In this document: piece after piece, positions 24,623 through 39,309 of the stretch
Position numbering within the stretch: position 1 is the stretch's first letter
Layout: each line of letters opens with the position of its first letter
DNA from: Thermodesulfobacteriota bacterium
Lineage (GTDB): Bacteria; Thermosulfidibacterota; Thermosulfidibacteria; Thermosulfidibacterales; B14-G1
DNA length: 43,390 nucleotides
Direction of reading: 5' to 3'
Assembly (NCBI GenBank): GCA_024274915.1
Contig: JAJSAC010000036.1
Coordinates: 1 to 43,390 of the forward strand
Translations under genes and position numbers: made by a program
The notes under the pieces: generated by a model
The model's database searches: none
Told to the model about the DNA's origin: nothing
What the model saw: the letters and a program-made list of their open reading frames with translations, nothing else

Positions 24623-24699
24623 GCCCCCGGGGACAGGGTGGTTGCGTGGAGTTCTATTCTGAGATAAGGGAGGCACAGAACCCATCTTGGAGGTGAGAA

Positions 24700-25371
24700 G
24701 TGAGGATTTTTAATATCTTCCGTAAGTCTCCTTTTGAGCCTCTTCAAGAGATGATGGCCAAGGTGAAGGAGTGCGCCTTTGAAGTTAAACCCCTCTATGA
24801 GGCTCTTTTGGATGGGGACAGGGAGAAGGTGAGGAGGATGGCGGAGCGGATCTCCCATTTGGAGTTTGAAGCCGACCAGATCAAGAACAGGCTGAGGGCC
24901 TCCTTGCCCCGGGGGATCCTTATGCCTGTGGCCAGGGCCGACATCTTGGAGATCCTGGCCAATGAAGATGCCATTGCTGACGCTGCAGAGGACGTGGCCG
25001 TCCTCATGACCCTGAAGGAGGACCTTACCGTCACCTCTCAACTTAGGGAATGCCTCCTCAGTTTGGTGGACAGTGTGTTGGAGGTGGTGGAGCTGGCCTC
25101 AAAGGTGATAGAGGAGCTGGATCTCCTGGTGGAGACGTCTTTTAGTGGTCCAGAGGCCCAAAGGGTTATTTCCATGATAGATGAGGTGTGCGATGTGGAG
25201 CACCATGCCGATGAGGTGCAGCGGGAGGTGACCCGGAACTTCTTGTCCCACGAGGTCAAATTCAGCTCGGGCGAGCTGTGGCTGTGGTTGAAGATTGTGG
25301 CCAAAACGGGGGATATAGCCAACTACGCCGAAAGGATGTGTAACAGGGTCCGCTTGTTCCTCTCTAAGTGA
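24700..25371 (+). CDS. DUF47 / PhoU-like phosphate transport regulator (TIGR00153 type)
   Basis: A 223-residue all-helical, PhoU-like protein. [25 protein letters not shown] opens the protein, and the two acidic helices [22 protein letters not shown] and [20 protein letters not shown] correspond to the metal-binding repeats of the family. Such proteins are encoded next to Pit phosphate transporters and are thought to regulate them. It begins with GTG at 24700 after GGAGGTGAGAA, and its stop lies 10 bases before the Pit gene, so both are one unit. It is cytoplasmic with no membrane segment. Confidence 0.9.
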
Positions 25372-25381
25372 GGAGGTTTCC

Positions 25382-26626
25382 ATGGTGAACACTGTCATTC
25401 TGGGGATAGCTCTGGCCGGTGGGCTGTACATGGCCTGGAACATAGGAGCCAACGATGTGGCCAATGCGATGGGTACATCGGTGGGCTCCCGGGCGTTGAC
25501 TCTGAAGCAGGCCATATTGGTTGCTGGACTTTTTGAGTTCTTGGGGGCGGTGCTGGTGGGTTCCCACGTCACCCAGACCATCAGCAAGGGGATAGTTGAT
25601 CCCCGCCTCTTTGCTGGAGTCCAGGGGGAGTTCGTTCTGGGGATGCTGGCTGCCCTGCTTTCGGCGGGGATCTGGCTTCAGTTGGCCACTTATATGGGTC
25701 TGCCCGTTTCCACCACCCATTCCATTGTGGGGGCTGTGGTGGGCTTTGGACTGGTTTCCTATGGGGTTTCAGCCGTGGAGTGGGGAAAGCTGGCCAAAAT
25801 TGTGGCCAGCTGGGTGATCTCCCCCATCATGGGAGCCCTCATCTCCTTTCTCCTTTTCCGGCAGCTTTCCAAAAGGATTCTGGAACAGCCTTATCCATTG
25901 AAGGCCACCCGGCGATACGCCCCCTTTCTGGTGATGCTGGTCTTCGTCATTCTCACCCTATCCTTTACTTATAAGGGGTTGAAGAACCTGAGGCTAGATC
26001 TGTCCCTCACCAGGGCCTTACTGGTGGCTTTCGTGGTAGGCCTTGGAGGAATGGTCTTCACTGCTTACGCCATGGGGCATTTCAAGATCCAACCGGGGGC
26101 CAAGATCCGGGAGAGACTCAGGGAGGTGGAAGGTATCTTCAAGTACCTCCAAGTGATGACTGCCTGCTATATGGCTTTTGCCCATGGTGCCAACGATGTG
26201 GCCAATGCTACAGGACCTCTGGCGGCCATCTTCAGCACCATGAAAGCGGCTTCTGTCCAGGTCAGGGTTGCCGTGCCTTTGTGGGTGCTCTTTTTGGGTG
26301 GCCTGGGGATCGTGGTGGGGCTGGCCACCTGGGGCTACAAGGTGATAGAGACGGTGGGGAGGAGAATCACCGACATCACCCCCAGCAGGGGGTTTTGTGC
26401 CGAATTCGGTTGTGCCACCACCGTGTTGGTCTGTTCCAAACTGGGCATGCCCATCTCCACCACCCATACCCTGGTGGGCTCCGTGGTGGGGGTGGGACTG
26501 GCCAGGGGTATAGGGGCTCTCAATTTGAGGATACTAAAGGATATCTTCTTGTCCTGGATAGTCACTCTCCCCTTCACTGCGGGTCTGGCAATGCTCCTCT
26601 ATGTCTTTCTAAGAGCTGTGTTTTAG
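25382..26626 (+). CDS. Inorganic phosphate transporter, Pit family
   Basis: A 414-residue membrane protein with about ten to twelve segments in two related halves. The family-defining motifs occur twice: [12 protein letters not shown] at residues 22-33 and [12 protein letters not shown] from residue 269; [14 protein letters not shown] and [15 protein letters not shown] are the second repeated signature. These proteins are proton or sodium coupled phosphate (metal-phosphate) symporters of the inner membrane. ATG at 25382 follows GAGGAGG-like AGTGAGGAGGTTTCC. The upstream DUF47 gene is its likely regulator. Sulfate permease-like members exist but the PhoU-like neighbour argues for phosphate. 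Confidence 0.94.
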
Positions 26627-26840
26627 GATGCTTGGGCGATGGGGATGGCACACACTCTAATGGTTCTTCTACCTTGAAACCAGACTCTTTCTGAGAAAAT
26701 TTCTGTGGAAGTGGGCGGTTTTTTCTAGGAGCCCTTTTGAACAGATTTTGCAGGGGTGAAGGGATCGCGGTGGAGATTTGTCTCCATGTTGACTTTCCAA
26801 CAGTCTGAGTCCATCATTCTTTTTGGAGGTGGAGGCGTCC

Positions 26841-28493
26841 ATGGAGAAGTGCTGGCTTAAGGGTGTATTGGAGTGTGGAGAGTGTCCCAATATAGATCCC
26901 GATACGGAGGCCCACCTTTTGAGGGATCCCAATGCCAGGATGAGAGAGAAGTGTGTGGAATGCCCCAAGCTCATGGTAGACCTGATGAGTTGCGAGGCCC
27001 CCCATCAAGTGGCCATGAAGCTTTTACCCAGGGTGATGGAGGGGGACCAGGGAGAGATTCAGCGTCTCAAAGAAAAACTGGATCATGGAAAGCGCAGAAT
27101 AAAGGCCCTGAGTGAGGTGACGTCCCTCATCAGGGATTCTACTGATCTTGAAAAGATCATTTACACCATCCTCACCTATCTCACGGCAGGGGATGGTTTC
27201 GGTTACAACCGGGCCTGGGTCTTACTGGCAGAAGGGGATGCTTTGAAGGGTTATTGGGCCATAGGTCCCAGGGATTATCGCGAAGCCATGGAGATATGGC
27301 GTTGTATGGGAGAAGAGGGCTGTTCTATCAGGGACCTTTTACGTAGAAGGGAGGCCCTCCTCAAGGACAAGGATAAGTTCCGTCCCGTATTGGAGAAACT
27401 GGTCTTTCCCCTTGATCCCCGGGAGCCTCTGGTTAGGCTTTTGGAGGCTAGGAAGGCGGCCCTGGTGGATAGGGACACCTGTCCGGAGCTGGCTAGCCTT
27501 CTGGATTTGCTGAATGTGAGGACCCTTTTGGTGTTGCCCCTATGGAGCGGAGAGGCGCTCCTGGGCTGCATTTTGGTGGACAATGTGGTCTCCAATGATC
27601 CCTTCCACCCCGTGGAGGTGAGGGCCCTGGAGACTTTTGCCGTCCAGGCGGCCTTGGCTATAGAGAGGGCCCGCCTGTACCGCCAGCTGGAGGAGAAGGT
27701 CCGGGAGCTGGAAAAGAGCAGCTGGGAGAAGGAGTGCCGTCACGATTCCATCACCAAGCTGGAGAAGATGTCAGCGGTGGGCTCTATCACCTCAAAGATG
27801 GCCCATGAAATCAGGAATCCTGTGACGGCCATCGGTGGCTTGGCTAACTACCTGTTGAAGACTGGCAAGAGTGATGAGAAGGTGCTGAGAACCATTGTCG
27901 AAGAGTCCAGACGGTTGGAGGAGTTGGTGAGGGATCTCATTGCCTTTGCTGACACCATCTGTCCCTCCAAGACCCGGCTGGACCTCAGGATGGTGGTTAA
28001 GAAGGCTGTTCAGGAGGCTGAGGAGACTTTGGAGAAAGGAGATCACACCTTCCACCTATTCCTTGATGACGAGCCCCTCATGCTCCGGGTAGATCCAAGA
28101 CATGTAAGGACCCTTGTCTGGCACCTGTTGAAGAACGCCATAGAGGCTATGCCTGAAGGTGGGGAGATCAAGGTTTCTTTGAAAAGGGTGGAAGATGCGG
28201 CCCTTCTTGAGGTGGAGGATAAGGGTAACGGCATCCCTTCACACGTGATGGAGGAGGTGACTCGCCCCTTCTTTAGCACCAAAGGGGGTACGGGCATGGG
28301 GTTGCCCATATGTGTCACTGCGGCCAAGGAATATGGAGGGGAGCTGGAGATCCTTTCATCTTCTCGGGGAACTGTGGTGAAGGTGAGACTTCCTTTGAAG
28401 GATGGAGAGGAAGAGGCTGGCGAGGGCTATGGGAATAGACACCGCTCTTGGAGAGAAGGGAACGGGATGCTTAATGGGGGAAGGGAGGGGTGA
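26841..28493 (+). CDS. GAF-domain sensor histidine kinase with cysteine-rich N-terminus
   Basis: A 550-residue soluble kinase with no membrane segment. The N-terminus has C4, C12, C15, C38, C41 and C51 (CGECPN, CVECPKL), a pattern that could bind a metal or Fe-S cluster. A coiled-coil helix (65-85) is followed by a GAF domain (about 90-270), a linker helix, then HisKA with the phospho-histidine H322 in KMAHEIRNPVTAIGG, and HATPase_c with LLKNAIEAMPEGG, DKGNGIP and TGMGLPICVTAAKEYGG. ATG at 26841 follows GGAGG with a 5-base gap; a TTG at 26823 is less likely. The partner is probably the receiver gene 67 bases downstream. The sensed signal is unknown; redox or metal is plausible from the cysteines. 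Confidence 0.93.
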   Translation: MEKCWLKGVLECGECPNIDPDTEAHLLRDPNARMREKCVECPKLMVDLMSCEAPHQVAMKLLPRVMEGDQGEIQRLKEKLDHGKRRIKALSEVTSLIRDSTDLEKIIYTILTYLTAGDGFGYNRAWVLLAEGDALKGYWAIGPRDYREAMEIWRCMGEEGCSIRDLLRRREALLKDKDKFRPVLEKLVFPLDPREPLVRLLEARKAALVDRDTCPELASLLDLLNVRTLLVLPLWSGEALLGCILVDNVVSNDPFHPVEVRALETFAVQAALAIERARLYRQLEEKVRELEKSSWEKECRHDSITKLEKMSAVGSITSKMAHEIRNPVTAIGGLANYLLKTGKSDEKVLRTIVEESRRLEELVRDLIAFADTICPSKTRLDLRMVVKKAVQEAEETLEKGDHTFHLFLDDEPLMLRVDPRHVRTLVWHLLKNAIEAMPEGGEIKVSLKRVEDAALLEVEDKGNGIPSHVMEEVTRPFFSTKGGTGMGLPICVTAAKEYGGELEILSSSRGTVVKVRLPLKDGEEEAGEGYGNRHRSWREGNGMLNGGREG

Positions 28494-28560: not shown

Positions 28561-28941
28561 ATGGGAAAAGCGAAGCTTCTCATAGTAGACGATGAAGAGA
28601 GCATCCGGCTCCTCTATCAGCAGGAATTCACCGATGAAGGCTATGATGTGGTGCTAGCTTCTTCTGGAGAGGAGGCCTTGAAGGTCCTGAATAGGGAGCC
28701 TGTGGACTTGGTGATCTTGGACATTCGTATGAAGGAGATGAGCGGTCTGGAGGCCCTCCAGCATATCGTCAAGGAGAAGAAGAACCTGCCCGTGATCCTC
28801 TGTTCCGCCTACTCTTCTTATCAAGATGATTTCTCCAGCTGGCTGGCCGATGCTTATGTCATCAAGTCCTCGGATCTCACCGAACTTAAAGAAGAGGTGA
28901 GGAGGCTTTTGGAGAAGTATTACGGAGGAGGGAAAGTGTGA
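28561..28941 (+). CDS. Single-domain response regulator (receiver only)
   Basis: A 126-residue receiver domain. The acidic pocket is in LLIVDDEESIRLL, the phospho-acceptor is the aspartate in VILDIRMKEMSG, the conserved hydroxyl is in LCSAYSSY and the lysine in YVIKSSDL. There is no DNA-binding output. It follows the histidine kinase on the same strand and ends with GTGTGA, in which the GTG (28938) starts the next gene. Translational coupling with a sugar-nucleotide enzyme makes a direct metabolic target thinkable, but a phosphorelay intermediate is also possible. ATG at 28561 has GGGGGTGAT upstream. Confidence 0.92.
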   Translation: MGKAKLLIVDDEESIRLLYQQEFTDEGYDVVLASSGEEALKVLNREPVDLVILDIRMKEMSGLEALQHIVKEKKNLPVILCSAYSSYQDDFSSWLADAYVIKSSDLTELKEEVRRLLEKYYGGGKV

Positions 28942-31460
28942 GAGCTGTAATAATGGCAGGGGGCTTTGGTACCAGGATCAGGCCCCTCACCTCTTCCATC
29001 CCCAAGCCCATGCTCCCCCTGGTGAATCTTCCCATAATGGAACATATCGTGCGTCTTCTGAGGCGCCACGGTTTCTTAGATCTGGTGGTTCTCCTGTATT
29101 ATCAGCCTCAGGTGATTCGGGACTACTTCGGCGACGGATCCGACTGGGGAGTCAGGATGACCTATGTCACCCCTACCAAGGACCTGGGCACCGCCGGGGC
29201 GGTGAAGGCCGCGGCCATTTATCTGGATGCCCCTTTCCTGGTCATCTCTGGAGACCTTCTTACGGACATGGACCTGACCGCTATGAAGGACTTTCACGAG
29301 GAGAAGGGTTCCTGGGCCACCTTGGGGCTGGTTTCGGTGGTGAATCCCCTTCAATTTGGAGTGGTTATCACCGATAAAGGGGGCAGGGTCGTCAAATTTT
29401 TGGAGAAACCAGGCTGGGGGGAGGTCTTCAGTGACACAATAAACACAGGGGTCTACATGCTGGAGCCCCAGGTTCTGGACCGGATCCCCAAGGATGAGGA
29501 GTTCGACTTTAGTAAGGACTTGTTCCCCAAGCTTCTGGCTGAGGATAAGCCCCTGTACGGTTTTCACACCAAGGACTACTGGAGGGATATCGGTGATCCA
29601 GAGTCTTATCAAGAGGCCCACCACGATATCTTTGACGGCTTGGTGAGGGTGGAGATCCCCGGAACCAAACTGGACCTGGTGGGTAGGGACGTTAGGGTGG
29701 GCCACGAGGTGGAGATAGCGGATGAGGTCCGGTTTGAAGGGGCCGTCATTTTGGGCAATAACACCCGAGTAGGTGGAGGTTGTTATCTCAAGAACTGTGT
29801 TCTGGGAAGTAATTGCGCCCTGGCTCCCCGGGCCCGGGTGGTGGATTCCGTCATATGGGACAATGTGCTGGTGGGTGAGAATGCCCAGGTGAAGGGGGCG
29901 GTCATTTGCAACAGCGTGAAGCTTGGAGCCGGGGCTATGGTGGAGAAGGGAGCAGTGGTGGCCGAGGGATGCACCATTGGCGCTGGTGCTGTGGTGAAAG
30001 AGGGGGTGATGATTTGGCCCAGCAAGGTTCTGGAAGAGGGGGCCGTTCTCACCGATAACCTTATATGGGGGGAGAAGTGGAAGAAACGCCTCTTTGAGAG
30101 TTCCATGGTGACAGGTATCACCAATATGGACCTCACCCCCGAGTTTGTAGCCAAGCTGGGGGTGGCTTACGGGTCCACTCTGCCGAAAGGCTCCTATATT
30201 TTGACGGGCCGGGATTCTTTCAGGGCCTCCCGGATGCTCAAGCGGGCCTTCATCGGGGGGGTCCTCTCGGCGGGGGTCAATGTAAAGGACTTGCGCCTGG
30301 TTCCAGAGCCTGTTCTCCGGTATAAGCTCCAGTCCTTCGGTGAGGTGGGGGGCGTTGTCTTCCGCCAGTCCAGGGAGAACCCCTCGGTGACAGAGATCTG
30401 TTTCTATGACACCGAGGGCCTGGACATCTCCACCAGTCAAGAGAAGGGAATCGAGAGACTCTTTGCCCGGGAAGATTTCCGCAGGATTCACTATTCTGAG
30501 CCCGGGGGTATTTCCGATATGCCCAGGGTGGTGGATTTTTATCGGGAGGGCTTTCTTAAGGCCTTGGACAGAGAAGCGGTGAAGGGGGCCCGGTTCAGGA
30601 TCGTGGTGGACTTCGCCCATGGTCCTGCCAGCATCCTCCTGCCGGAGCTTTTGGGGGAGTTAGGATGTGATGTGGTGGGGATAAACGCTTACATGGAGGA
30701 GAAGGCCCTTTCCGATGAGGGGAGATTGGCCCATTCCCTGGAAAGCCTCTCCAAAATAGTGACAGCTTTGGGGGCCCACGGAGGATTCCGCATCTCTCCT
30801 TCAGGGGAGGAACTGATCCTGGTGGATGAGGGGGGGCAGGTGTATCAGGGTATGGAAGCCCTTGTGGTGGTCTCTTCCCTGGTTCTGGCGTCCCAGGGGT
30901 CGGGTACCCTGGTGGTGCCCGTGGCGGCCCCTGGGGTCTTGGAGGACATGGCTGTTCAAAAGGGATTCTCCTTGCGACGGGTGCCTCATGGCTCCAGGAG
31001 TATCGCTGAGGCCTGCCGGAAGGGGGGTGTGGTTATGGGAGCCTCCATGGAGGGGGGGTTTGTATTCCCCCGGTTCCACCACGTCTTTGACGCCATGTTC
31101 GCTTTGGCTAAGGTGTTGGAGATGATGGCCAGGGGCGGGGTCTCCCTGGGTTGGGCTTGGGAGACGGTGCCTTCCACCGTCTTTCTCCGCCGGGATCTTC
31201 ACTGCCCATGGGAGCTTAAAGGAACCATTATGAGGCGTCTCAGCGAAGAAGCGGCTGACAAGGAGGCTTCCTTTGTGGATGGCATCAAGATATTCTTTCC
31301 CGACGGGGCGTGGGTCCTTCTTTTGCCCCATCAAGTTAAGCCCCTCTTTCATCTCTATGCCGAGGCCCAGGTAGAGGAGAGGGCGAGAGAGCTCTTGGAC
31401 CACTACCAGAGGTTGGTGGAGGAGTGGAAAGGGGAGGCCAAGGGTGGGGTCAAGGACTGA
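28938..31460 (+). CDS. Sugar-phosphate nucleotidyltransferase fused to a degenerate phosphohexomutase-like domain
   Basis: An 840-residue fusion. Residues 1-240 are an NTP_transferase domain: IMAGGFGTRIRPLT with the signature loop, SIPKPMLPLVN, and the metal-binding DLLTDMDL. Residues 250-370 hold left-handed beta-helix hexapeptide repeats (GGCYLKNCVLGSNCALAPRA). Residues 380-830 resemble phosphomannomutase/phosphoglucomutase, but the expected catalytic loops are changed: TASHNP reads RQSRENPS, the DGDxDR metal loop reads SPSGEEL, GEESGH reads ASMEGG, and the RPSGTEP phosphate loop reads LPHQVKP. The N-terminal half looks competent (mannose-1-P or glucose-1-P as substrate); the C-terminal half is probably non-catalytic. 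GTG at 28938 overlaps the receiver stop; its end overlaps the GH57 gene by 17 bases. Confidence 0.9.
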   Translation: MRAVIMAGGFGTRIRPLTSSIPKPMLPLVNLPIMEHIVRLLRRHGFLDLVVLLYYQPQVIRDYFGDGSDWGVRMTYVTPTKDLGTAGAVKAAAIYLDAPFLVISGDLLTDMDLTAMKDFHEEKGSWATLGLVSVVNPLQFGVVITDKGGRVVKFLEKPGWGEVFSDTINTGVYMLEPQVLDRIPKDEEFDFSKDLFPKLLAEDKPLYGFHTKDYWRDIGDPESYQEAHHDIFDGLVRVEIPGTKLDLVGRDVRVGHEVEIADEVRFEGAVILGNNTRVGGGCYLKNCVLGSNCALAPRARVVDSVIWDNVLVGENAQVKGAVICNSVKLGAGAMVEKGAVVAEGCTIGAGAVVKEGVMIWPSKVLEEGAVLTDNLIWGEKWKKRLFESSMVTGITNMDLTPEFVAKLGVAYGSTLPKGSYILTGRDSFRASRMLKRAFIGGVLSAGVNVKDLRLVPEPVLRYKLQSFGEVGGVVFRQSRENPSVTEICFYDTEGLDISTSQEKGIERLFAREDFRRIHYSEPGGISDMPRVVDFYREGFLKALDREAVKGARFRIVVDFAHGPASILLPELLGELGCDVVGINAYMEEKALSDEGRLAHSLESLSKIVTALGAHGGFRISPSGEELILVDEGGQVYQGMEALVVVSSLVLASQGSGTLVVPVAAPGVLEDMAVQKGFSLRRVPHGSRSIAEACRKGGVVMGASMEGGFVFPRFHHVFDAMFALAKVLEMMARGGVSLGWAWETVPSTVFLRRDLHCPWELKGTIMRRLSEEAADKEASFVDGIKIFFPDGAWVLLLPHQVKPLFHLYAEAQVEERARELLDHYQRLVEEWKGEAKGGVKD

Positions 31461-33447
31461 AGTGGCCCTCCTCTTCGGTGTCCACGGTCACCAGCCCGTG
31501 GGTAACTTTCCCTGGATCTTTGAAGAGGCCTTTGAGAAGGCCTATAGACCCTTCATGGAGGTGGTGAGGGATTTTCCTTCCTTCTCCTTTACCCTCCACT
31601 ACACAGGTCCTCTGTGGGAGTGGATTGAGAGGGAGCGTTCCTGGTTCATGGAATGGGTGGGGGAGATGGTGGATAGGGGTCAGGTGGAGATCCAGGTTAG
31701 CGGCTTCTATGAGCCTGTACTGGCTGCCATCCCTGTCCGGGACCGTCTCGGCCAAATAGAGATGGCCAGGGAATATGTGAAATCCCGATGGGGCGTGGTG
31801 CCCCGGGGCCTTTGGCTCACGGAGAGGGTGTGGGAACCCCAGATCCTTCCCCAACTGCTGGAGGCAGGGATAGAGCACGTGGTGGTGGACGATTATCACT
31901 TTCTTTGTGCTGGCAGGGAAGAGGGGGAGTTGGGAGGTTATTTCCTCACCGAAGACGAGGGTGAAACCCTGGCCGTTTTTCCCATCAGCGAGAGGCTCCG
32001 GTACCTTATACCCTTTCGCCCTGTGGACCGGGTGATGGACTATTTGCGGGACCATCCCGGCCCCGGGGCTATTATCCACGATGATGCCGAGAAGTTTGGT
32101 ATATGGCCGGGGACCCACGACTGGGTCTATAGGAAGGGATGGCTCAGGAGATTTTTGGAGGCGGTGGAGGGGGAACCCCGGGTGAAGACCCTCACCTTCT
32201 CCCGGTTCATGGAGGAGTTCCCTCCCCAGGGTCGGGTCTATCTACCCACGGCTTCATATTTTGAAATGGGTGAGTGGAGTTTGCCTCCTGAGTTGGCCAG
32301 GGAGTTTCACCGTTTGGTGGAAGATCTCAAGGCCAAGGGTGAGTGGGAGCTATACAGGCCCTTCTTCAGGGGGGGTATCTGGAGAAACTTTCTGGTGAAA
32401 TACCCTGAGGCCAACCACATGCACAAACGGATGGTGTGGGTGAGCAAGAGGGTTTCTGGCGTCGACCTGGAGGCTAAGAAAGCCCTTTACAGGGCCCAGT
32501 GCAATGATGCCTACTGGCATGGTATTTTTGGTGGTCTCTATCTACCCCACCTCCGGAGGACTGTCTACTCTCACTTGCTGGAGGCCGAGGCCCAGGCTGG
32601 GGTAGGGTTGGAGGGAGCCTGGGTAGAGGATCTGGATGCCGATGGTCATGAGGAGCTGATTCTTTCCAATAAGGAGTATCTGGTGGTGATAAAGCCCTCC
32701 CAAGGAGGATCGTTGGTGGAGCTGAGCTCCAGGGTGGAGGGGGTGAATATCACCGACACGTTGGCCCGGCGTTTCGAGCACTACCACCGGGAAGAAGAGA
32801 TCCACCGCCGGGGGGGAGATGGGGCCCCCAGTATCCATGAGTATGCCAAGGCCCCTCCCAGGGAGGGGTTGGTTTACGATCCGTTGCCTCGATACAGTTT
32901 TGTGGATTACCTGGTGCCGGAAGGGTTTTCTATGGGGGATTGGGAGGAGGGCCGGTGGGAGGGGGTGAGGCTTTTGGGTTTCCAGGGCTACCACCTATCC
33001 CTTGGAGGTGGTGGTTGGACGCTCCTCTGGGAGGAGGGAGACACCAGGTTGGAGAAGACCTACCGGCTTTTGCCCCGGGGATTGGAGGTGAGCTATGCCT
33101 TTTCTCTACCTCAGGAGGTGGCTTTGGCTGTGGGGATAGACCTCCACCTGCCCTGGGCTGATAATGCTTGGGTAGAGGTGGCCGGGAGGAGGGTGGCGGC
33201 TACGGGCAGGAAGTGTTGGGGAAAGATCGGAGGATGGGTCTGTAGAGATCCTTCCCTTTCTTCTCCCTTTGTGGTGACTTTGGGGAAGGAGGAGGAGGTT
33301 TGGCAGGTGCCTTTCTTCACCCTTTCCCAGTCAGAACAGGGCTTAGATGAGATATATCAGGGAACGGGGTTTTTGGTTGTGGTGGAAGGGGGAGGAGGTG
33401 TCACTTTCTCCCTTGGTCTAAAGCGGGAGGAGATGAGCGATGCCTGA
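31444..33447 (+). CDS. Glycoside hydrolase family 57, 4-alpha-glucanotransferase type
   Basis: A 667-residue GH57 enzyme. The first 300 residues are the (beta/alpha)7 barrel: FGVHGHQPVGNFPW (motif 1), GFYEPVLAAIP (motif 2), GLWLTERVWEPQILP (motif 3, catalytic nucleophile E127) and IIHDDAEKFGIWPGT (motif 4, acid/base aspartate at 213-214). The remainder, with YLPTASYFEMGEWSLP and two beta-rich domains (DUF1925/DUF1926 type), matches the Thermococcus 4-alpha-glucanotransferase group. It would rearrange or shorten alpha-1,4-glucans in the cytoplasm; no signal peptide is seen. GTG at 31444 has GGGGAGG 6 bases upstream. It overlaps both neighbours, so it is tightly coupled. Alpha-amylase activity is a possible alternative. 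Confidence 0.92.
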   Translation: MGSRTEVALLFGVHGHQPVGNFPWIFEEAFEKAYRPFMEVVRDFPSFSFTLHYTGPLWEWIERERSWFMEWVGEMVDRGQVEIQVSGFYEPVLAAIPVRDRLGQIEMAREYVKSRWGVVPRGLWLTERVWEPQILPQLLEAGIEHVVVDDYHFLCAGREEGELGGYFLTEDEGETLAVFPISERLRYLIPFRPVDRVMDYLRDHPGPGAIIHDDAEKFGIWPGTHDWVYRKGWLRRFLEAVEGEPRVKTLTFSRFMEEFPPQGRVYLPTASYFEMGEWSLPPELAREFHRLVEDLKAKGEWELYRPFFRGGIWRNFLVKYPEANHMHKRMVWVSKRVSGVDLEAKKALYRAQCNDAYWHGIFGGLYLPHLRRTVYSHLLEAEAQAGVGLEGAWVEDLDADGHEELILSNKEYLVVIKPSQGGSLVELSSRVEGVNITDTLARRFEHYHREEEIHRRGGDGAPSIHEYAKAPPREGLVYDPLPRYSFVDYLVPEGFSMGDWEEGRWEGVRLLGFQGYHLSLGGGGWTLLWEEGDTRLEKTYRLLPRGLEVSYAFSLPQEVALAVGIDLHLPWADNAWVEVAGRRVAATGRKCWGKIGGWVCRDPSLSSPFVVTLGKEEEVWQVPFFTLSQSEQGLDEIYQGTGFLVVVEGGGGVTFSLGLKREEMSDA

Positions 33448-34474
33448 ACTGAGGATGGATCCCATAAAGGAGAGGTGGGTGATAATAGCGGTAGAAAGGG
33501 CTAGGAGGCCTGAGGACTTTCAGATTCCGCCTGAGGAGACGAGGCTTCATGCCTGCCCCTTCTGTTACGGCAATGAGGACAAAACCCCTCCGGAGGTTTT
33601 TGCCATCAGGCCTCCGGATTCTCCCCCCGACACCTCGGGGTGGCGGGTGAGGGTCACTCCCAACAAGTATCCCGCCCTGCGTATAGAGGGAGATCTGGTG
33701 CGGGAAGGTGTGGGAGTTTTTGATCGGATGTCGGGTATAGGGGCCCACGAGGTGGTGATAGAGAACCCTGACCACAACCGTTCTCTGGCGGATCTCTCCA
33801 TAGAAGAGATAAGAGATGTACTCTTGGCCTATAGGGAGCGGATAAAGGACTTAAGGAAGGACCAGCGTTTCCGCTATGTGCTGGTCTTCAAAAACCACAG
33901 GTCGGCGGCTGGGGCCTCCCTCTCCCACTCCCACAGCCAGATCATAGCCACCCCCGTCACCCCTTTCATAGTGATTCAGGAGTTGCGGGCGGCCCAGGAG
34001 CACTACCTCAAGAAGGAGCGGTGCATTTTCTGTGACATCATAAAGCAGGAACTGGTCATAGGCAGAAGGGTGGTGAAAGCTGACGAGGACTATTTGCTTT
34101 GGGCTCCCTTTGCCTCTTGTTTCCCCTTTGAGACCTGGCTTTTTCCCCTGAAGCACCGTCACGACTTCACCCTTCTGGCTGATGATGAGTTGCTGGTCTT
34201 GGCCAGGGCCATGAAGGAGATGCTATTGAGGATGAAGCTGGTCCTCAATGATCCCCCCTACAACTTCGTTCTCCACACCAGTCCTTCCCTCACTCCCAGG
34301 CCGGGTAAGCCTCAATATTGGGGTACCATCGAGTACGATTACCATTGGCACCTAGAGCTGGTTCCCCGTCTCACCAAGATCGCCGGCTTTGAGTGGGGCA
34401 CAGGGTTTTACATCAATCCCACGCCCCCTGAGGTGGCGGCGGAGGAGCTTAGAAAGATAGAGATAGAGCTCTAG
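33440..34474 (+). CDS. galT: Galactose-1-phosphate uridylyltransferase (HIT superfamily)
   Basis: A 344-residue GalT. The first zinc-site cysteines C39 and C42 are in CPFC, a further pair in CIFCDII, and the catalytic histidine motif is HSHSQ at residues 163-167 (family HxHxQ; HSHSQ is seen in thermophile and archaeal-type enzymes). NKYPALR, GAHEVVIENPDH and FVLHTSP also fit. The enzyme transfers UMP between glucose and galactose phosphates; some relatives act as ADP-glucose phosphorylases, which would suit the glucan-linked neighbours. ATG at 33440 overlaps the GH57 stop by 8 bases, with GGGAGGAG upstream. A terminator follows. Confidence 0.92.
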   Translation: MPELRMDPIKERWVIIAVERARRPEDFQIPPEETRLHACPFCYGNEDKTPPEVFAIRPPDSPPDTSGWRVRVTPNKYPALRIEGDLVREGVGVFDRMSGIGAHEVVIENPDHNRSLADLSIEEIRDVLLAYRERIKDLRKDQRFRYVLVFKNHRSAAGASLSHSHSQIIATPVTPFIVIQELRAAQEHYLKKERCIFCDIIKQELVIGRRVVKADEDYLLWAPFASCFPFETWLFPLKHRHDFTLLADDELLVLARAMKEMLLRMKLVLNDPPYNFVLHTSPSLTPRPGKPQYWGTIEYDYHWHLELVPRLTKIAGFEWGTGFYINPTPPEVAAEELRKIEIEL

Positions 34475-36617: not shown

Positions 36618-37412
36618 ATGGCTGCCATGGGGGTGTTCCTATCAACGGGCTCTCTTTACATCTTTCCCCTGGAGAAGAGCTTCTATCTGGCCAGCAGGGC
36701 GGGTTTCGATGGTGTAGAGCTTGTGGCTAACGAGATATACAGAAAACCCAGGGTGGAGGCCTATTTGCGGGATCTTTCCAGGATAGCTCCCATAAGGGTC
36801 ATTCATGCCCCCTTTTTGGTGAAGGGAGGTGGTAGGGAAAAGATCCGTTCCCTTTTAAGGTCTGTAGAGCTAGCCCAGGAGTTGGGGATTTCAAGGGTGG
36901 TTTTCCATCCTCCCAGGAGGTTTCCTCCTGAAGTTAGGTATCTTAGATGGTTCAAGAGGACCAGGGACTTTTCTCAGGTGGGGCGAGGGGTGGAGCTTTC
37001 CTTGGAACTCATGCCTGCCTTCCCTTTGGGGGGGATAAAGGTGAACCTTTTTTCCACCAACTCGAGGGAGGGGCTGGTGGCCTTTGCCGAGGAGAGGGGT
37101 CTGGGCATCACTATGGACACCACCCATGCAGGTACCTGGGGCTGGGATTTGGTGGAGACTTACTGTATACTTAATACCAATGGCCGGGTTAACCACATTC
37201 ACTTCAGTGACTTTGCCCCCTGGAAGGAGCATCTTTGGCCTGGTAAAGGGTGTTTGAAATTGGAAACGTTTGTCAGTTTTTTAAAAGAGGAAGGGTTTGC
37301 GGGATCCATCACTTTGGAGGTGGATCCCCGGGAGTTGCCCCAGGACGACCTGGCCAAGATCAGGGTTTTTAAGGAGATTATCTCCTGGGTAAGGGAGAAA
37401 GATCATGGATAA
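36618..37412 (+). CDS. Sugar phosphate isomerase/epimerase family protein (AP_endonuc_2 TIM barrel)
   Basis: A 264-residue xylose-isomerase-like TIM barrel. It reads FYLASRAGFDGVELVANEIYRKP, IRVIHAPFL, GISRVVFHPP, TLGITMDTTHAGTWGWD-like text (GLGITMDTTHAGTWG), NHIHFSDFAPWKEHLWPGKGCL and ITLEVDPREL; the histidines, glutamates and aspartates that bind a divalent metal in this fold are in those strands. Substrate unknown; relatives act on sugar phosphates or inosose. The ATG at 36618 has no clear ribosome-binding site; the promoter gives a leader of about 40 bases. Its last 8 bases overlap the start of the cNMP/CBS gene, so they are coupled. Confidence 0.83.
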   Translation: MAAMGVFLSTGSLYIFPLEKSFYLASRAGFDGVELVANEIYRKPRVEAYLRDLSRIAPIRVIHAPFLVKGGGREKIRSLLRSVELAQELGISRVVFHPPRRFPPEVRYLRWFKRTRDFSQVGRGVELSLELMPAFPLGGIKVNLFSTNSREGLVAFAEERGLGITMDTTHAGTWGWDLVETYCILNTNGRVNHIHFSDFAPWKEHLWPGKGCLKLETFVSFLKEEGFAGSITLEVDPRELPQDDLAKIRVFKEIISWVREKDHG

Positions 37413-39309
37413 GCTCGATTTTTTGAGAGAAGTTAGACCTTTTGACAGGATCCCCCCCGAGGATCTGGAAGGGCTCTTGCAAGGTCTTTATGAGATGAGG
37501 TTTGAGCCAGGAACCCTAATTGTCAGGAAGGGGGATGAGCCGAGGCCAGCCCTCCTTCTCATTCGGTGGGGCTTGGTGAAGGTCTTCCTCGAAAAGGAAG
37601 ATAGGGAGGTGGTCCTGGGGTACCGGGGAGAAGGGGAGGTGCTGGGAGAGGAGACCTTCATCACCCGTGGTCTTTACCCTTATTCGGCCCAGGCTGTGGA
37701 GGAGACCCTGATTTACTGTCTTCCCTGGGATGGCCTCTCCCGTCTCATGGACAAGTACCCCGAGCTCTATCAGAAGCTGAGTAAACTCATAGGCAGGCGT
37801 ATGGCCCATATCTACGAAGATCTGCCCAGGGTGATGCCTGGGGAAGGCCAGACAGGAATCTTGGACACTTCCCTCCTGCGCCGCCGGGTGGGAGAGATTC
37901 TTCGGGAGAAGCATTTGGTGGTGGCTGGCGAGCACCTTTCGGTGGTGGAAGCGGCAAAGCTCATGAAGGAAAAGGGGGTAGATTCTCTGGTAGTCGTGAA
38001 GGATGACCGTCCTGTGGGCATTGTCACTGACAGAGACATGGTGACCAGGTATCTGGCCAGGGACTTAAATGGGGCCACCTTGGGGGAGATCATGACCCCC
38101 CACCCCTTGACGGTGAATATCAATGACTTTGCCTATCAAGCCCTTCTTATCATGCTGAGACACGGGGTTCGTCATCTCATAGTGGTGGAGGAGACGGGTA
38201 GACCCTTGGCCATTCTTACCCAGAGGGAGCTTCTGCGGTCTAAAACCGAAGACATTCTGGAGCTCACCGACAGGACCGCTGGTGCTGTTTCCATAGAGGA
38301 GCTGAAGGATAGCTATAATCAGGTGCCCGTCATCATTGAGGCCCTCATGGCTGACAATGCCTCGGTAAGGGAGATTTGCGAGGTGGTGAGCGAGTTCAAT
38401 GACCTGGTCACCTCCCGGGTGGTTGAGATCTGTTTGAAGGAGCTGGAGGCAGAGGAAGGGCCACCCCCAGCCCCGTTCTGTTTCATGGTCTTCGGTAGCG
38501 GTGGTCGCAGGGAGCAGACTTTGAGAACGGACCAGGACAACGGCATGGTCTTCGTCGCTCAAGGGAAGGGTAAGGAGGTGAACCACTTCTTTGAGGCCTT
38601 GGCAGACAAGGTGGTTCCGGCCCTGGAGGCCTGCGGTTTTCCCTTGTGTCCAGGCAATATGATGGCCACCAATCCCCAGTGGAGGAGGCCTTTGGGGTCC
38701 TGGGAGGAGGAGCTGGAGGAATGGTTTCTCCATCCCACCAGAGGGGTGATGCTCAAGTGTAGCATGTTCTTTGATTTGAGGGGCATTTACGGCGACAAGG
38801 GACTGGTGGATCGGCTGTGGGAGGTGGTTTTCAGGTATGTCAAGTCTTACCCCGGTTTCGTGGCCCGTATGGGCAAGTCTTCGGCGGAGATCAAGCCCCC
38901 CATAGGCCTCTTTGGTCGTTTCATTGTAGAGAAGTCGGGAGAACACAAGAATGCCATTGACATTAAGCTCAGGGGATGTCTGCCCATAGTGGAGGGGGTG
39001 AGGTCTCTGGCCTTGGTGGAAGGGATAAGGGATACCAACACCTTCGATCGTATAGAGGCCCTGGCCCAAGTAGGTACCTTCACAAAGGATCAGGCCGATG
39101 AGCTTAACTATACCTACCAGTTCCTCCTCACCTTGAGAATCAGAAGCCATATCCAACTCCTCAAGGAGGGGAAAAAGTTGCACAACCATGTTGATCCCTC
39201 CCGTCTTACCAAGCGGGAACGACAGATCCTCAAAGACTGCTTTGCTTCCATTTACCGCCTCCAACAGTTGGTGATGGCCAAGACGGAGGCGGTGTTTTTG
39301 CCTGATTGA
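37405..39309 (+). CDS. cNMP-binding/CBS/DUF294 nucleotidyltransferase signalling protein
   Basis: A 634-residue, soluble, three-part protein. Residues 1-135 are a cyclic-nucleotide-binding (cupin-like) domain: FEPGTLIVRKGDEP, GEVLGEETFITRGLYPYSAQAVEETLI. Residues 165-285 are a pair of CBS motifs (VDSLVVVKDDRPVGIVTDRDMV and RHLIVVEETGRPLAILTQREL), probably binding adenine nucleotides. Then the DUF294 nucleotidyltransferase with GSGGRREQ at 364-371 and TDQDNGMVF, related to GlnD, and the DUF294_C domain with an all-helical end. Predicted to sense energy charge or cNMP. Family members are frequently next to acetate permease or acetyl-CoA synthetase genes. It overlaps the gene before by 8 bases. 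Confidence 0.9.
   Translation: MDKLDFLREVRPFDRIPPEDLEGLLQGLYEMRFEPGTLIVRKGDEPRPALLLIRWGLVKVFLEKEDREVVLGYRGEGEVLGEETFITRGLYPYSAQAVEETLIYCLPWDGLSRLMDKYPELYQKLSKLIGRRMAHIYEDLPRVMPGEGQTGILDTSLLRRRVGEILREKHLVVAGEHLSVVEAAKLMKEKGVDSLVVVKDDRPVGIVTDRDMVTRYLARDLNGATLGEIMTPHPLTVNINDFAYQALLIMLRHGVRHLIVVEETGRPLAILTQRELLRSKTEDILELTDRTAGAVSIEELKDSYNQVPVIIEALMADNASVREICEVVSEFNDLVTSRVVEICLKELEAEEGPPPAPFCFMVFGSGGRREQTLRTDQDNGMVFVAQGKGKEVNHFFEALADKVVPALEACGFPLCPGNMMATNPQWRRPLGSWEEELEEWFLHPTRGVMLKCSMFFDLRGIYGDKGLVDRLWEVVFRYVKSYPGFVARMGKSSAEIKPPIGLFGRFIVEKSGEHKNAIDIKLRGCLPIVEGVRSLALVEGIRDTNTFDRIEALAQVGTFTKDQADELNYTYQFLLTLRIRSHIQLLKEGKKLHNHVDPSRLTKRERQILKDCFASIYRLQQLVMAKTEAVFLPD

What the first reader, a model, noticed from the sequence alone, without database searches (positions are those of the whole stretch)
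30120..31460. Mutase-like half of the nucleotidyltransferase fusion looks catalytically dead
In the C-terminal part of the 840-residue protein, all four loops that define phosphohexomutases are altered: TASHNP is replaced by RQSRENPS, the metal-binding DGDxDR by SPSGEEL, GEESGH by ASMEGG, and RPSGTEP by LPHQVKP. The overall order and spacing are kept, so this is a mutase fold that may have become a sugar-phosphate sensor or scaffold. The N-terminal nucleotidyltransferase loop is intact. The gene is coupled to a receiver gene (GTGTGA overlap), which hints that signalling and this domain could meet.
Basis: partly seen in the sequence, partly recalled or inferred. Interest (0 to 1): 0.72.

Follow-up and report, generated by a model that had tools for sequence, protein, structure and literature searches.

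The report
Dead mutase fused to a nucleotidyltransferase
This protein joins an apparently working enzyme that activates sugars to a second enzyme-shaped half that has lost the parts needed for its old reaction yet is kept by natural selection in bacteria of several phyla; it mostly occurs where the usual glycogen-pathway enzyme GlgC is missing, so it may be a stand-in for GlgC with a built-in regulatory part.

Summary
The 840-residue ORF (28938-31460, +) is NTP_transferase + left-handed beta-helix + a full four-domain alpha-phosphohexomutase fold (AlphaFold mean pLDDT 87; Z 44 to a solved archaeal mutase). The metal, phosphate and acid/base residues of a mutase are gone; only the serine position is nominally kept. 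This is no local accident: all 132 distinct full-length relatives found (window phylum, Desulfobacterota, Aquificota, Campylobacterota, Actinomycetota) lack TxSHNP, DGDxDR and RxSGTEP. The dead domains form one clade (100/100), are under strong purifying selection and share 16 newly fixed residues. The genome keeps three separate mutases with catalytic motifs.

New here: the gene sits in an alpha-glucan operon (HK - receiver - fusion - GH57 - GalT-like, often GlgA). Among GlgA-bearing Desulfobacterota it is almost mutually exclusive with GlgC (7 both; 38 fusion only; 183 GlgC only). The window genome has an ADP-glucose-type GlgA and no GlgC above cut-off.

Best reading: the N-terminal half substitutes for GlgC, and the pseudomutase half regulates or scaffolds it. 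Loss of catalysis is well supported; the glycogen role is inferred; ligand, sensor-versus-scaffold and receiver contact are untested. New variant of a known kind.

The parts
28938..31460 (+). nucleotidyltransferase - LbH - pseudomutase fusion, 840 aa
   Evidence: ORF; domains; 132 distinct family members
28938..29630 (+). NTP_transferase domain, residues 1-231; GGFGTR, K23, D106, EKP 156-158 and D217 invariant in the 46-sequence alignment, so predicted active
   Evidence: best solved relative 8x7s (tlr0611, UTP-glucose-1-P uridylyltransferase)
29700..29999 (+). left-handed beta-helix / hexapeptide repeats, about residues 255-354
   Evidence: beta pattern in model
30087..31427 (+). pseudo-phosphohexomutase, residues 384-830, all four domains of the fold
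   Evidence: 9du5_A Z 44.4, rmsd 2.5, 443 residues aligned
30363..30380 (+). former phosphoserine loop, RQSREN (476-481), instead of TASHNP
30795..30812 (+). former metal loop, SPSGEE (620-625), instead of DGDADR
31041..31058 (+). former sugar-binding loop, ASMEGG (702-707), instead of GEENGG/GEESGH
31323..31343 (+). former phosphate-binding loop, L-PHQVKP (796-802), instead of R-ASGTEP
28561..28941 (+). single-domain response regulator receiver, 4-base overlap with the fusion
   Evidence: adjacent in 53 of 63 loci
26823..28493 (+). GAF-HisKA-HATPase histidine kinase with an N-terminal Cys cluster
31444..33447 (+). GH57 alpha-amylase / 4-alpha-glucanotransferase
   Evidence: GH57 downstream in 57 of 61 loci
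33440..34474 (+). GalT-like (HIT superfamily) nucleotidyltransferase with HSHSQ motif
   Evidence: downstream in 54 of 61 loci

Best explanation
The protein is a sugar-1-phosphate nucleotidyltransferase whose fused mutase half is an ancient pseudoenzyme. SHOWN: the mutase half keeps the complete fold but has lost the metal-binding aspartates, the acid/base residues and the phosphate-binding residues; the same holds in every relative found, the dead domains form one clade, and purifying selection on them is strong. INFERRED: the N-terminal half makes the nucleotide-glucose (most likely ADP-glucose, possibly UDP-glucose) used by GlgA, standing in for the missing GlgC; the operon partners (GH57, GalT-like, GlgA) are the other alpha-glucan enzymes. 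INFERRED AND UNTESTED: the pseudomutase half sets the activity or assembly of the enzyme, by binding a sugar phosphate it can no longer convert and/or by docking a partner such as the receiver. This would replace the hexose-phosphate allostery that canonical GlgC carries.
For: Fold and alignment. Loss: 0/132 members keep TxSHNP, DGDxDR or RxSGTEP; median about 1 of 11 ancestral catalytic residues kept, at most 5; 24 positions conserved in active mutases are lost, including those aligned to the three-residue metal loop, S-H-N-P, K488, R796, S798, T800 and R805; no DxD anywhere in residues 384-840. Selection: window vs L008 dN/dS 0.048 for the mutase half, 0.026 for its domain I, 0.038 for the NTase. 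One clade, 100/100 support. 16 newly fixed residues, including R432, R436, R461, R515, R516, R766. Separate motif-bearing mutases in the genome. Operon. GlgC exclusion: within GlgA+ Desulfobacterota 7/38/183/27, Fisher p 9e-21; Aquificota 0/136 GlgC, and fusion in 22 GlgA+ and 1 GlgA- genomes, p 4e-9. Window phylum: GlgA in 8/9, GlgC above cut-off in 0/9, and the only match to the GlgC model in the window genome is the fusion itself. Own GlgA passes TIGR02095, 'ADP-glucose type', at 567.7 bits vs 328.45. NTase catalytic residues invariant.
Against: No activity, ligand or product was measured. The NTase half fails every curated specific family cut-off (best: Man-1-P guanylyltransferase 278 of 440 bits, GlgC about 119 of 425), so the substrate could be mannose-1-P or another sugar. 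Co-occurrence counts are not corrected for phylogeny, and 35 GlgA+ Aquificota and 27 GlgA+ Desulfobacterota have neither GlgC nor fusion, so other routes exist. In the window genome GlgA lies on another contig (C2). Actinomycete and Sulfuricurvum copies are not next to glycogen genes. The four old loops are not more conserved than the rest of the domain (entropy 1.81 vs 1.84 bits), which weakens a sensor using exactly the old pocket.
Confidence: 0.6

Rival explanations
1. The mutase half is purely structural: an oligomerisation or folding platform for the NTase/beta-helix core, without ligand sensing.
For: The old loops are only as conserved as the domain background; the newly fixed residues cluster on domain I helices and the last domain (432, 436, 461, 503, 512-516, 762-770), as an interface would; full fold kept.
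Against: Many of the newly fixed residues are Arg/Lys, and members keep new loop consensus within lineages (P797 in 132/132, D798 in 123/132), more than plain packing needs; but this does not exclude it.
Confidence: 0.3
2. The mutase half still catalyses a different reaction with a rebuilt active site.
For: New conserved residues (R425, D426, R432, R436, E512, D558, K761, P797-D798-Q799) could form a new site; some members keep Asp at position 620 and Glu at 624.
Against: No conserved metal triad or nucleophile: position 478 is Ser or Ala, 622 is Asp in 3 of 132, 624 is never Asp; no DxD in the half; conserved residues are spread over domain I and the last domain rather than over all four former loops.
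Confidence: 0.07
3. The NTase half makes GDP-mannose or another NDP-sugar for surface polysaccharide; the glycogen linkage is coincidental.
For: Best NCBIfam match is Man-1-P guanylyltransferase, although below cut-off; solved GMPP/VTC1 structures are close; the actinomycete relative SCO1388 is discussed as a GDP-mannose pyrophosphorylase candidate (PMC5982138).
Against: Operon with GH57, GalT-like and GlgA in two phyla, near-exclusion with GlgC, closest solved NTase is a glucose-1-P uridylyltransferase. In PMC5982138 disruption of SCO1388 added no phenotype to other GMP mutants.
Confidence: 0.25
4. The altered loops are a sequencing, assembly or frameshift artefact, or a decaying pseudogene.
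For: The window comes from a fragmented 77-contig assembly.
Against: 88, 79 and 76% identical full-length orthologs with the same altered loops in independent genomes; dN/dS about 0.05.
Confidence: 0.01

Closest known systems
Archaeal-type GlmM / PMM-PGM mutases (TIGR03990; solved 9du5, 1wqa)
   Same: Complete four-domain fold, about 30-32% identity over 443-446 residues
   Different: The four catalytic loops and the residues binding metal and phosphate are lost; fused to an NTase
Streptomyces SCO1388-type NTase-mutase fusions
   Same: Same architecture; the actinomycete relatives examined (L089-L091) are 36-38% identical over nearly the full length and also lack the motifs
   Different: SCO1388 is described as apparently bifunctional (PMC5982138), which the loops of the relatives examined here do not support; SCO1388 itself was not examined. 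No receiver or glycogen operon next to the actinomycete copies seen
GlgC, ADP-glucose pyrophosphorylase (TIGR02091)
   Same: NTP_transferase plus beta-helix; proposed same step before GlgA; mostly complementary distribution
   Different: The fusion scores about 119 bits against a cut-off of 424.9; it carries an extra pseudomutase half
Cyanobacterial tlr0611 UTP-glucose-1-phosphate uridylyltransferase (8x7s)
   Same: Best solved match to the NTase half, 35% structural-alignment identity
   Different: No mutase domain in the 401-residue chain
PGM5 (aciculin), a PGM-family protein without known mutase activity (from general knowledge); structure 6y8x
   Same: Non-enzymatic member of the alpha-phosphohexomutase fold (Z 36.2)
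   Different: Eukaryotic, stand-alone, adhesion-related; not fused to an NTase
eIF2B gamma/epsilon and GMPPA
   Same: NTase-beta-helix proteins in which one sugar-enzyme module became regulatory; eIF2B has a sugar-phosphate-bound structure (7kmf title)
   Different: There the NTase is the dead part; here the NTase is intact and the attached mutase is dead

Membership tests
alpha-D-phosphohexomutase fold | four-domain fold, PGM_PMM_I to III plus C-terminal domain | tested here: met
   Pfam I/II/III above cut-off; Z 44.4 to 9du5_A over 443 residues
catalytically competent phosphohexomutase | phosphoserine loop TxSHNP | tested here: not met
   RQSREN; 0 of 132 members
catalytically competent phosphohexomutase | metal loop DGDxDR with three Asp | tested here: not met
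   SPSGEE; 0 of 132 members
catalytically competent phosphohexomutase | sugar loop GEESGH | tested here: not met
   ASMEGG in the window; 3 of 132 members have GE.[SN]GG
catalytically competent phosphohexomutase | phosphate loop RxSGTEP | tested here: not met
   L-PHQVKP; 0 of 132 members
catalytically competent phosphohexomutase | measured mutase activity | not testable with these tools
   needs an assay
sugar-1-phosphate nucleotidyltransferase | GGxGTRxxPLTxxxPKPM, catalytic Asp, EKP motif, second metal Asp | tested here: met
   residues 8-25, D106, E156-K157-P158, D217 invariant
GlgC equivalog (TIGR02091) | score above curated cut-off 424.9 bits | tested here: not met
   118.9-119.8 bits
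functional GlgC substitute | complementary distribution with GlgC among GlgA-bearing genomes | tested here: met
   7/38/183/27, p 9e-21, not corrected for phylogeny
functional GlgC substitute | makes ADP-glucose from Glc-1-P and ATP | not testable with these tools
   needs an assay
mannose-1-P guanylyltransferase (NF052502) | score above cut-off 440 bits | tested here: not met
   278.1 bits
regulatory pseudoenzyme domain | fold kept under purifying selection after loss of catalysis | tested here: met
   dN/dS 0.048; single dead clade
regulatory pseudoenzyme domain | binds a ligand or partner and alters NTase activity | not testable with these tools
   needs binding and kinetic data

The most novel reading that the evidence does not exclude
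In several phyla GlgC has been displaced by a nucleotidyltransferase that carries its own allosteric module made from a dead phosphohexomutase, which senses hexose phosphates and, in the window phylum and Geobacterales, is additionally controlled by contact with a dedicated single-domain receiver, giving a two-component input directly into glycogen synthesis at the enzyme level.
Probability: 0.2. Interest if true: 0.82.

Novelty: new variant of a known kind. Interest (0 to 1): 0.58.

Why it matters
Glycogen synthesis in bacteria is normally gated by GlgC and its hexose-phosphate allostery. Many Geobacterales, other Desulfobacterota, Aquificota and the window phylum have GlgA without a recognisable GlgC. 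If this fusion fills the gap, it explains who makes the glucosyl donor there and offers a case where a neighbouring pathway enzyme, the mutase, was recruited as a regulatory part after losing its chemistry. It also warns that 'bifunctional' annotation of such fusions (for example SCO1388) may be wrong for the mutase half.

Tried and rejected
Artefact or decay: rejected by orthologs and dN/dS. Fusion born from an adjacent archaeal-type glmU-glmM pair: not supported, as the plasmid-borne archaeal pairs have the order glmM then glmU, opposite to the fusion. Old loops as a conserved new ligand site: not supported family-wide, 2255 of 5000 random windows in the half are as conserved. Residue-level mapping of the new residues on the model was not possible because coordinates are not given to the Python box. 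Cyanobacterial fusions known from memory (for example sll1496) could not be reached with the collections available and were not tested. Literature: no paper found in the held library describing this family as a pseudoenzyme or GlgC substitute, but subscription papers are not held.

Full report
WHAT IS THERE. The window contains an 840-residue ORF at 28938-31460 (+), GTG start, overlapping the receiver gene's stop in GTGTGA. Pfam places NTP_transferase at residues 3-231, beta-helix/hexapeptide repeats at 255-354, and PGM_PMM I, II and III at 384-515, 534-633 and 651-738. phmmer aligns residues 384-829 end to end with solved archaeal mutases: 9du5 at 4.1e-63 and 1wqa at 1.9e-59 for the C-terminal half alone. 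The loops fall in register: TASHNP to RQSREN, DGDADR to SPSGEE, GEENGG to ASMEGG, R-ASGTEP to L-PHQVKP. One nuance is that the phosphoserine position is still a serine (S478) in this protein, but alanine in 54 of 132 relatives.

STRUCTURE. AlphaFold2 with a 46-sequence family alignment gave mean pLDDT 86.7 and pTM 0.57; the linker 372-382 is poorly predicted, so the relative placing of the two halves is uncertain. The C-terminal half matches 9du5_A at Z 44.4, rmsd 2.5, 443 residues, and the N-terminal half matches eIF2B subunits, GMPP/VTC1 and tlr0611. The fold is complete.

THE LOSS IS FAMILY-WIDE AND OLD. A scan of species genomes gave 80 loci, in Geobacteraceae/Desulfuromonadales and MAGs labelled Aquificota. 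Further full-length relatives were found in 7 of 9 genomes of the window's phylum, 53 of 395 Desulfobacterota, 23 of 136 Aquificota, a Sulfuricurvum plasmid and actinomycete replicons. Of 132 distinct sequences, none has TxSHNP, DGDxDR or RxSGTEP; three have a GE.[SN]GG third loop. Against ten motif-bearing mutases, 24 positions conserved in the active set are lost, among them H479, N480, P481, K488, D622, D624, R796, S798, T800 and R805 by ancestral residue, while 16 positions are newly fixed: R432, R436, D451, R461, D491, K503, E512, R515, R516, L648, P661, P745, G762, M765, R766 and E770. A maximum-likelihood tree puts all 41 sampled dead domains on one side of a branch with 100/100 support; the root is not fixed by an outgroup, so one loss is the simplest but not the only reading. 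A small Desulfobacterota group (L123, L125, L128-L131) keeps 4-5 of 11 ancestral residues and lies near the base of the non-actinomycete part, as expected for stepwise decay.

SELECTION. Between the window and L008 (88% identical), dN/dS is 0.038 for the NTase, 0.048 for the mutase half and 0.026 for its domain I (NG86, dS above 1, so rough). The half is kept, not decaying. However, averaged over the family the four old loops are as variable as the rest of the half (1.81 vs 1.84 bits; 2255 of 5000 random windows as low), unlike an active mutase. The strong new constraint lies mainly in domain I and in the last domain.

THE NTASE IS INTACT. The GGFGTR...PKP loop, D106, EKP and D217 are invariant in the alignment. 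Specificity is open: Man-1-P guanylyltransferase 278 bits (cut-off 440), archaeal GlmU 201, GlgC 119 (cut-off 425); the nearest solved chain is a UTP-glucose-1-P uridylyltransferase.

CONTEXT. In 63 loci with enough upstream DNA the receiver is directly upstream in 53 and the GAF histidine kinase in 62; in 61 with enough downstream DNA a GH57 is present in 57, a GalT-like gene in 54 and GlgA in 18. Pfam confirms GH57, GalT-like and starch-synthase GlgA in Geobacter. Two Aquificota contigs have fusion - GH57 - GH57 - GalT-like - GlgA in a row, without the receiver. In two Desulfobacterota genomes (G318, G279) GlgA abuts the fusion.

GLGC. Among 395 Desulfobacterota, 246 have a GlgC match (E <= 1e-90) and 255 have GlgA; within GlgA-bearing genomes, 7 have fusion and GlgC, 38 fusion only, 183 GlgC only, 27 neither (Fisher p 9e-21). 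In 136 Aquificota no GlgC was found at E <= 1e-60; the fusion occurs in 22 GlgA+ and 1 GlgA- genomes (p 4e-9). These p-values ignore shared ancestry. In the window's phylum GlgA is present in 8 of 9 genomes, no GlgC reaches cut-off, and the single GlgC-model match in the window genome is this fusion. The window genome's GlgA passes the 'ADP-glucose type' model, 567.7 bits vs 328.45. The same genome has a separate GlmM, two PMM/PGM-like mutases with catalytic motifs, and GlmU, so a working mutase is supplied elsewhere.

HOW IT PROBABLY WORKS. Step 1 (inferred): the NTase half makes nucleotide-glucose from Glc-1-P for GlgA. Step 2 (inferred, weaker): the pseudomutase half, derived from the enzyme of the preceding step in such pathways, regulates or holds the NTase. 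Step 3 (hypothesis): the adjacent receiver, whose identity to the window exceeds that of the fusion in all 66 distant loci and whose alpha4-beta5-alpha5 face is nearly invariant, docks on a conserved partner, possibly this protein. Nothing here tests steps 2 or 3 directly.

COMPARISON AND NOVELTY. By fold it is a phosphohexomutase relative; by catalytic criteria it is not a phosphohexomutase. NTase-mutase fusions are known (SCO1388, described as apparently bifunctional, PMC5982138; its disruption added no phenotype there). What seems new is the family-wide, ancient loss of catalysis, its maintenance, and the glycogen/GlgC link; no paper in the held library was found that states this, which is not proof of absence. 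Rated a new variant of a known kind, interest 0.58.

Noticed in passing
window 26823-28493: The histidine kinase has an N-terminal cysteine cluster CW-x(7-12)-C-x(20-40)-C-x2-C before its GAF domain, present in 65 of 67 orthologs; a possible metal or redox input.
   Followed up: partly
window 28561-28941: Single-domain receiver unusually conserved, more so than the neighbouring fusion and kinase, with a nearly invariant Y-x-DDFS-x-WLAD segment on the predicted output face.
   Followed up: partly
window 33440-34474: GalT-like protein with HSHSQ (HAHSQ in 6 of 61 sequences), where GalT has HPHxQ from general knowledge; may be an NDP-glucose phosphorylase rather than a true GalT.
   Followed up: no
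window 24697-26626: DUF47/PhoU-like plus PHO4-family phosphate transporter pair just upstream of the kinase, also in the close relatives L008-L010.
   Followed up: no
L123, L125, L128-L131: A Desulfobacterota subgroup keeps more ancestral mutase residues (4-5 of 11; GE-x-SGG loop in L125, L130, L131), possibly an intermediate stage of the decay.
   Followed up: partly
window 37393-39306: cNMP-binding - CBS - DUF294 putative nucleotidyltransferase protein, a separate signalling-type gene.
   Followed up: no
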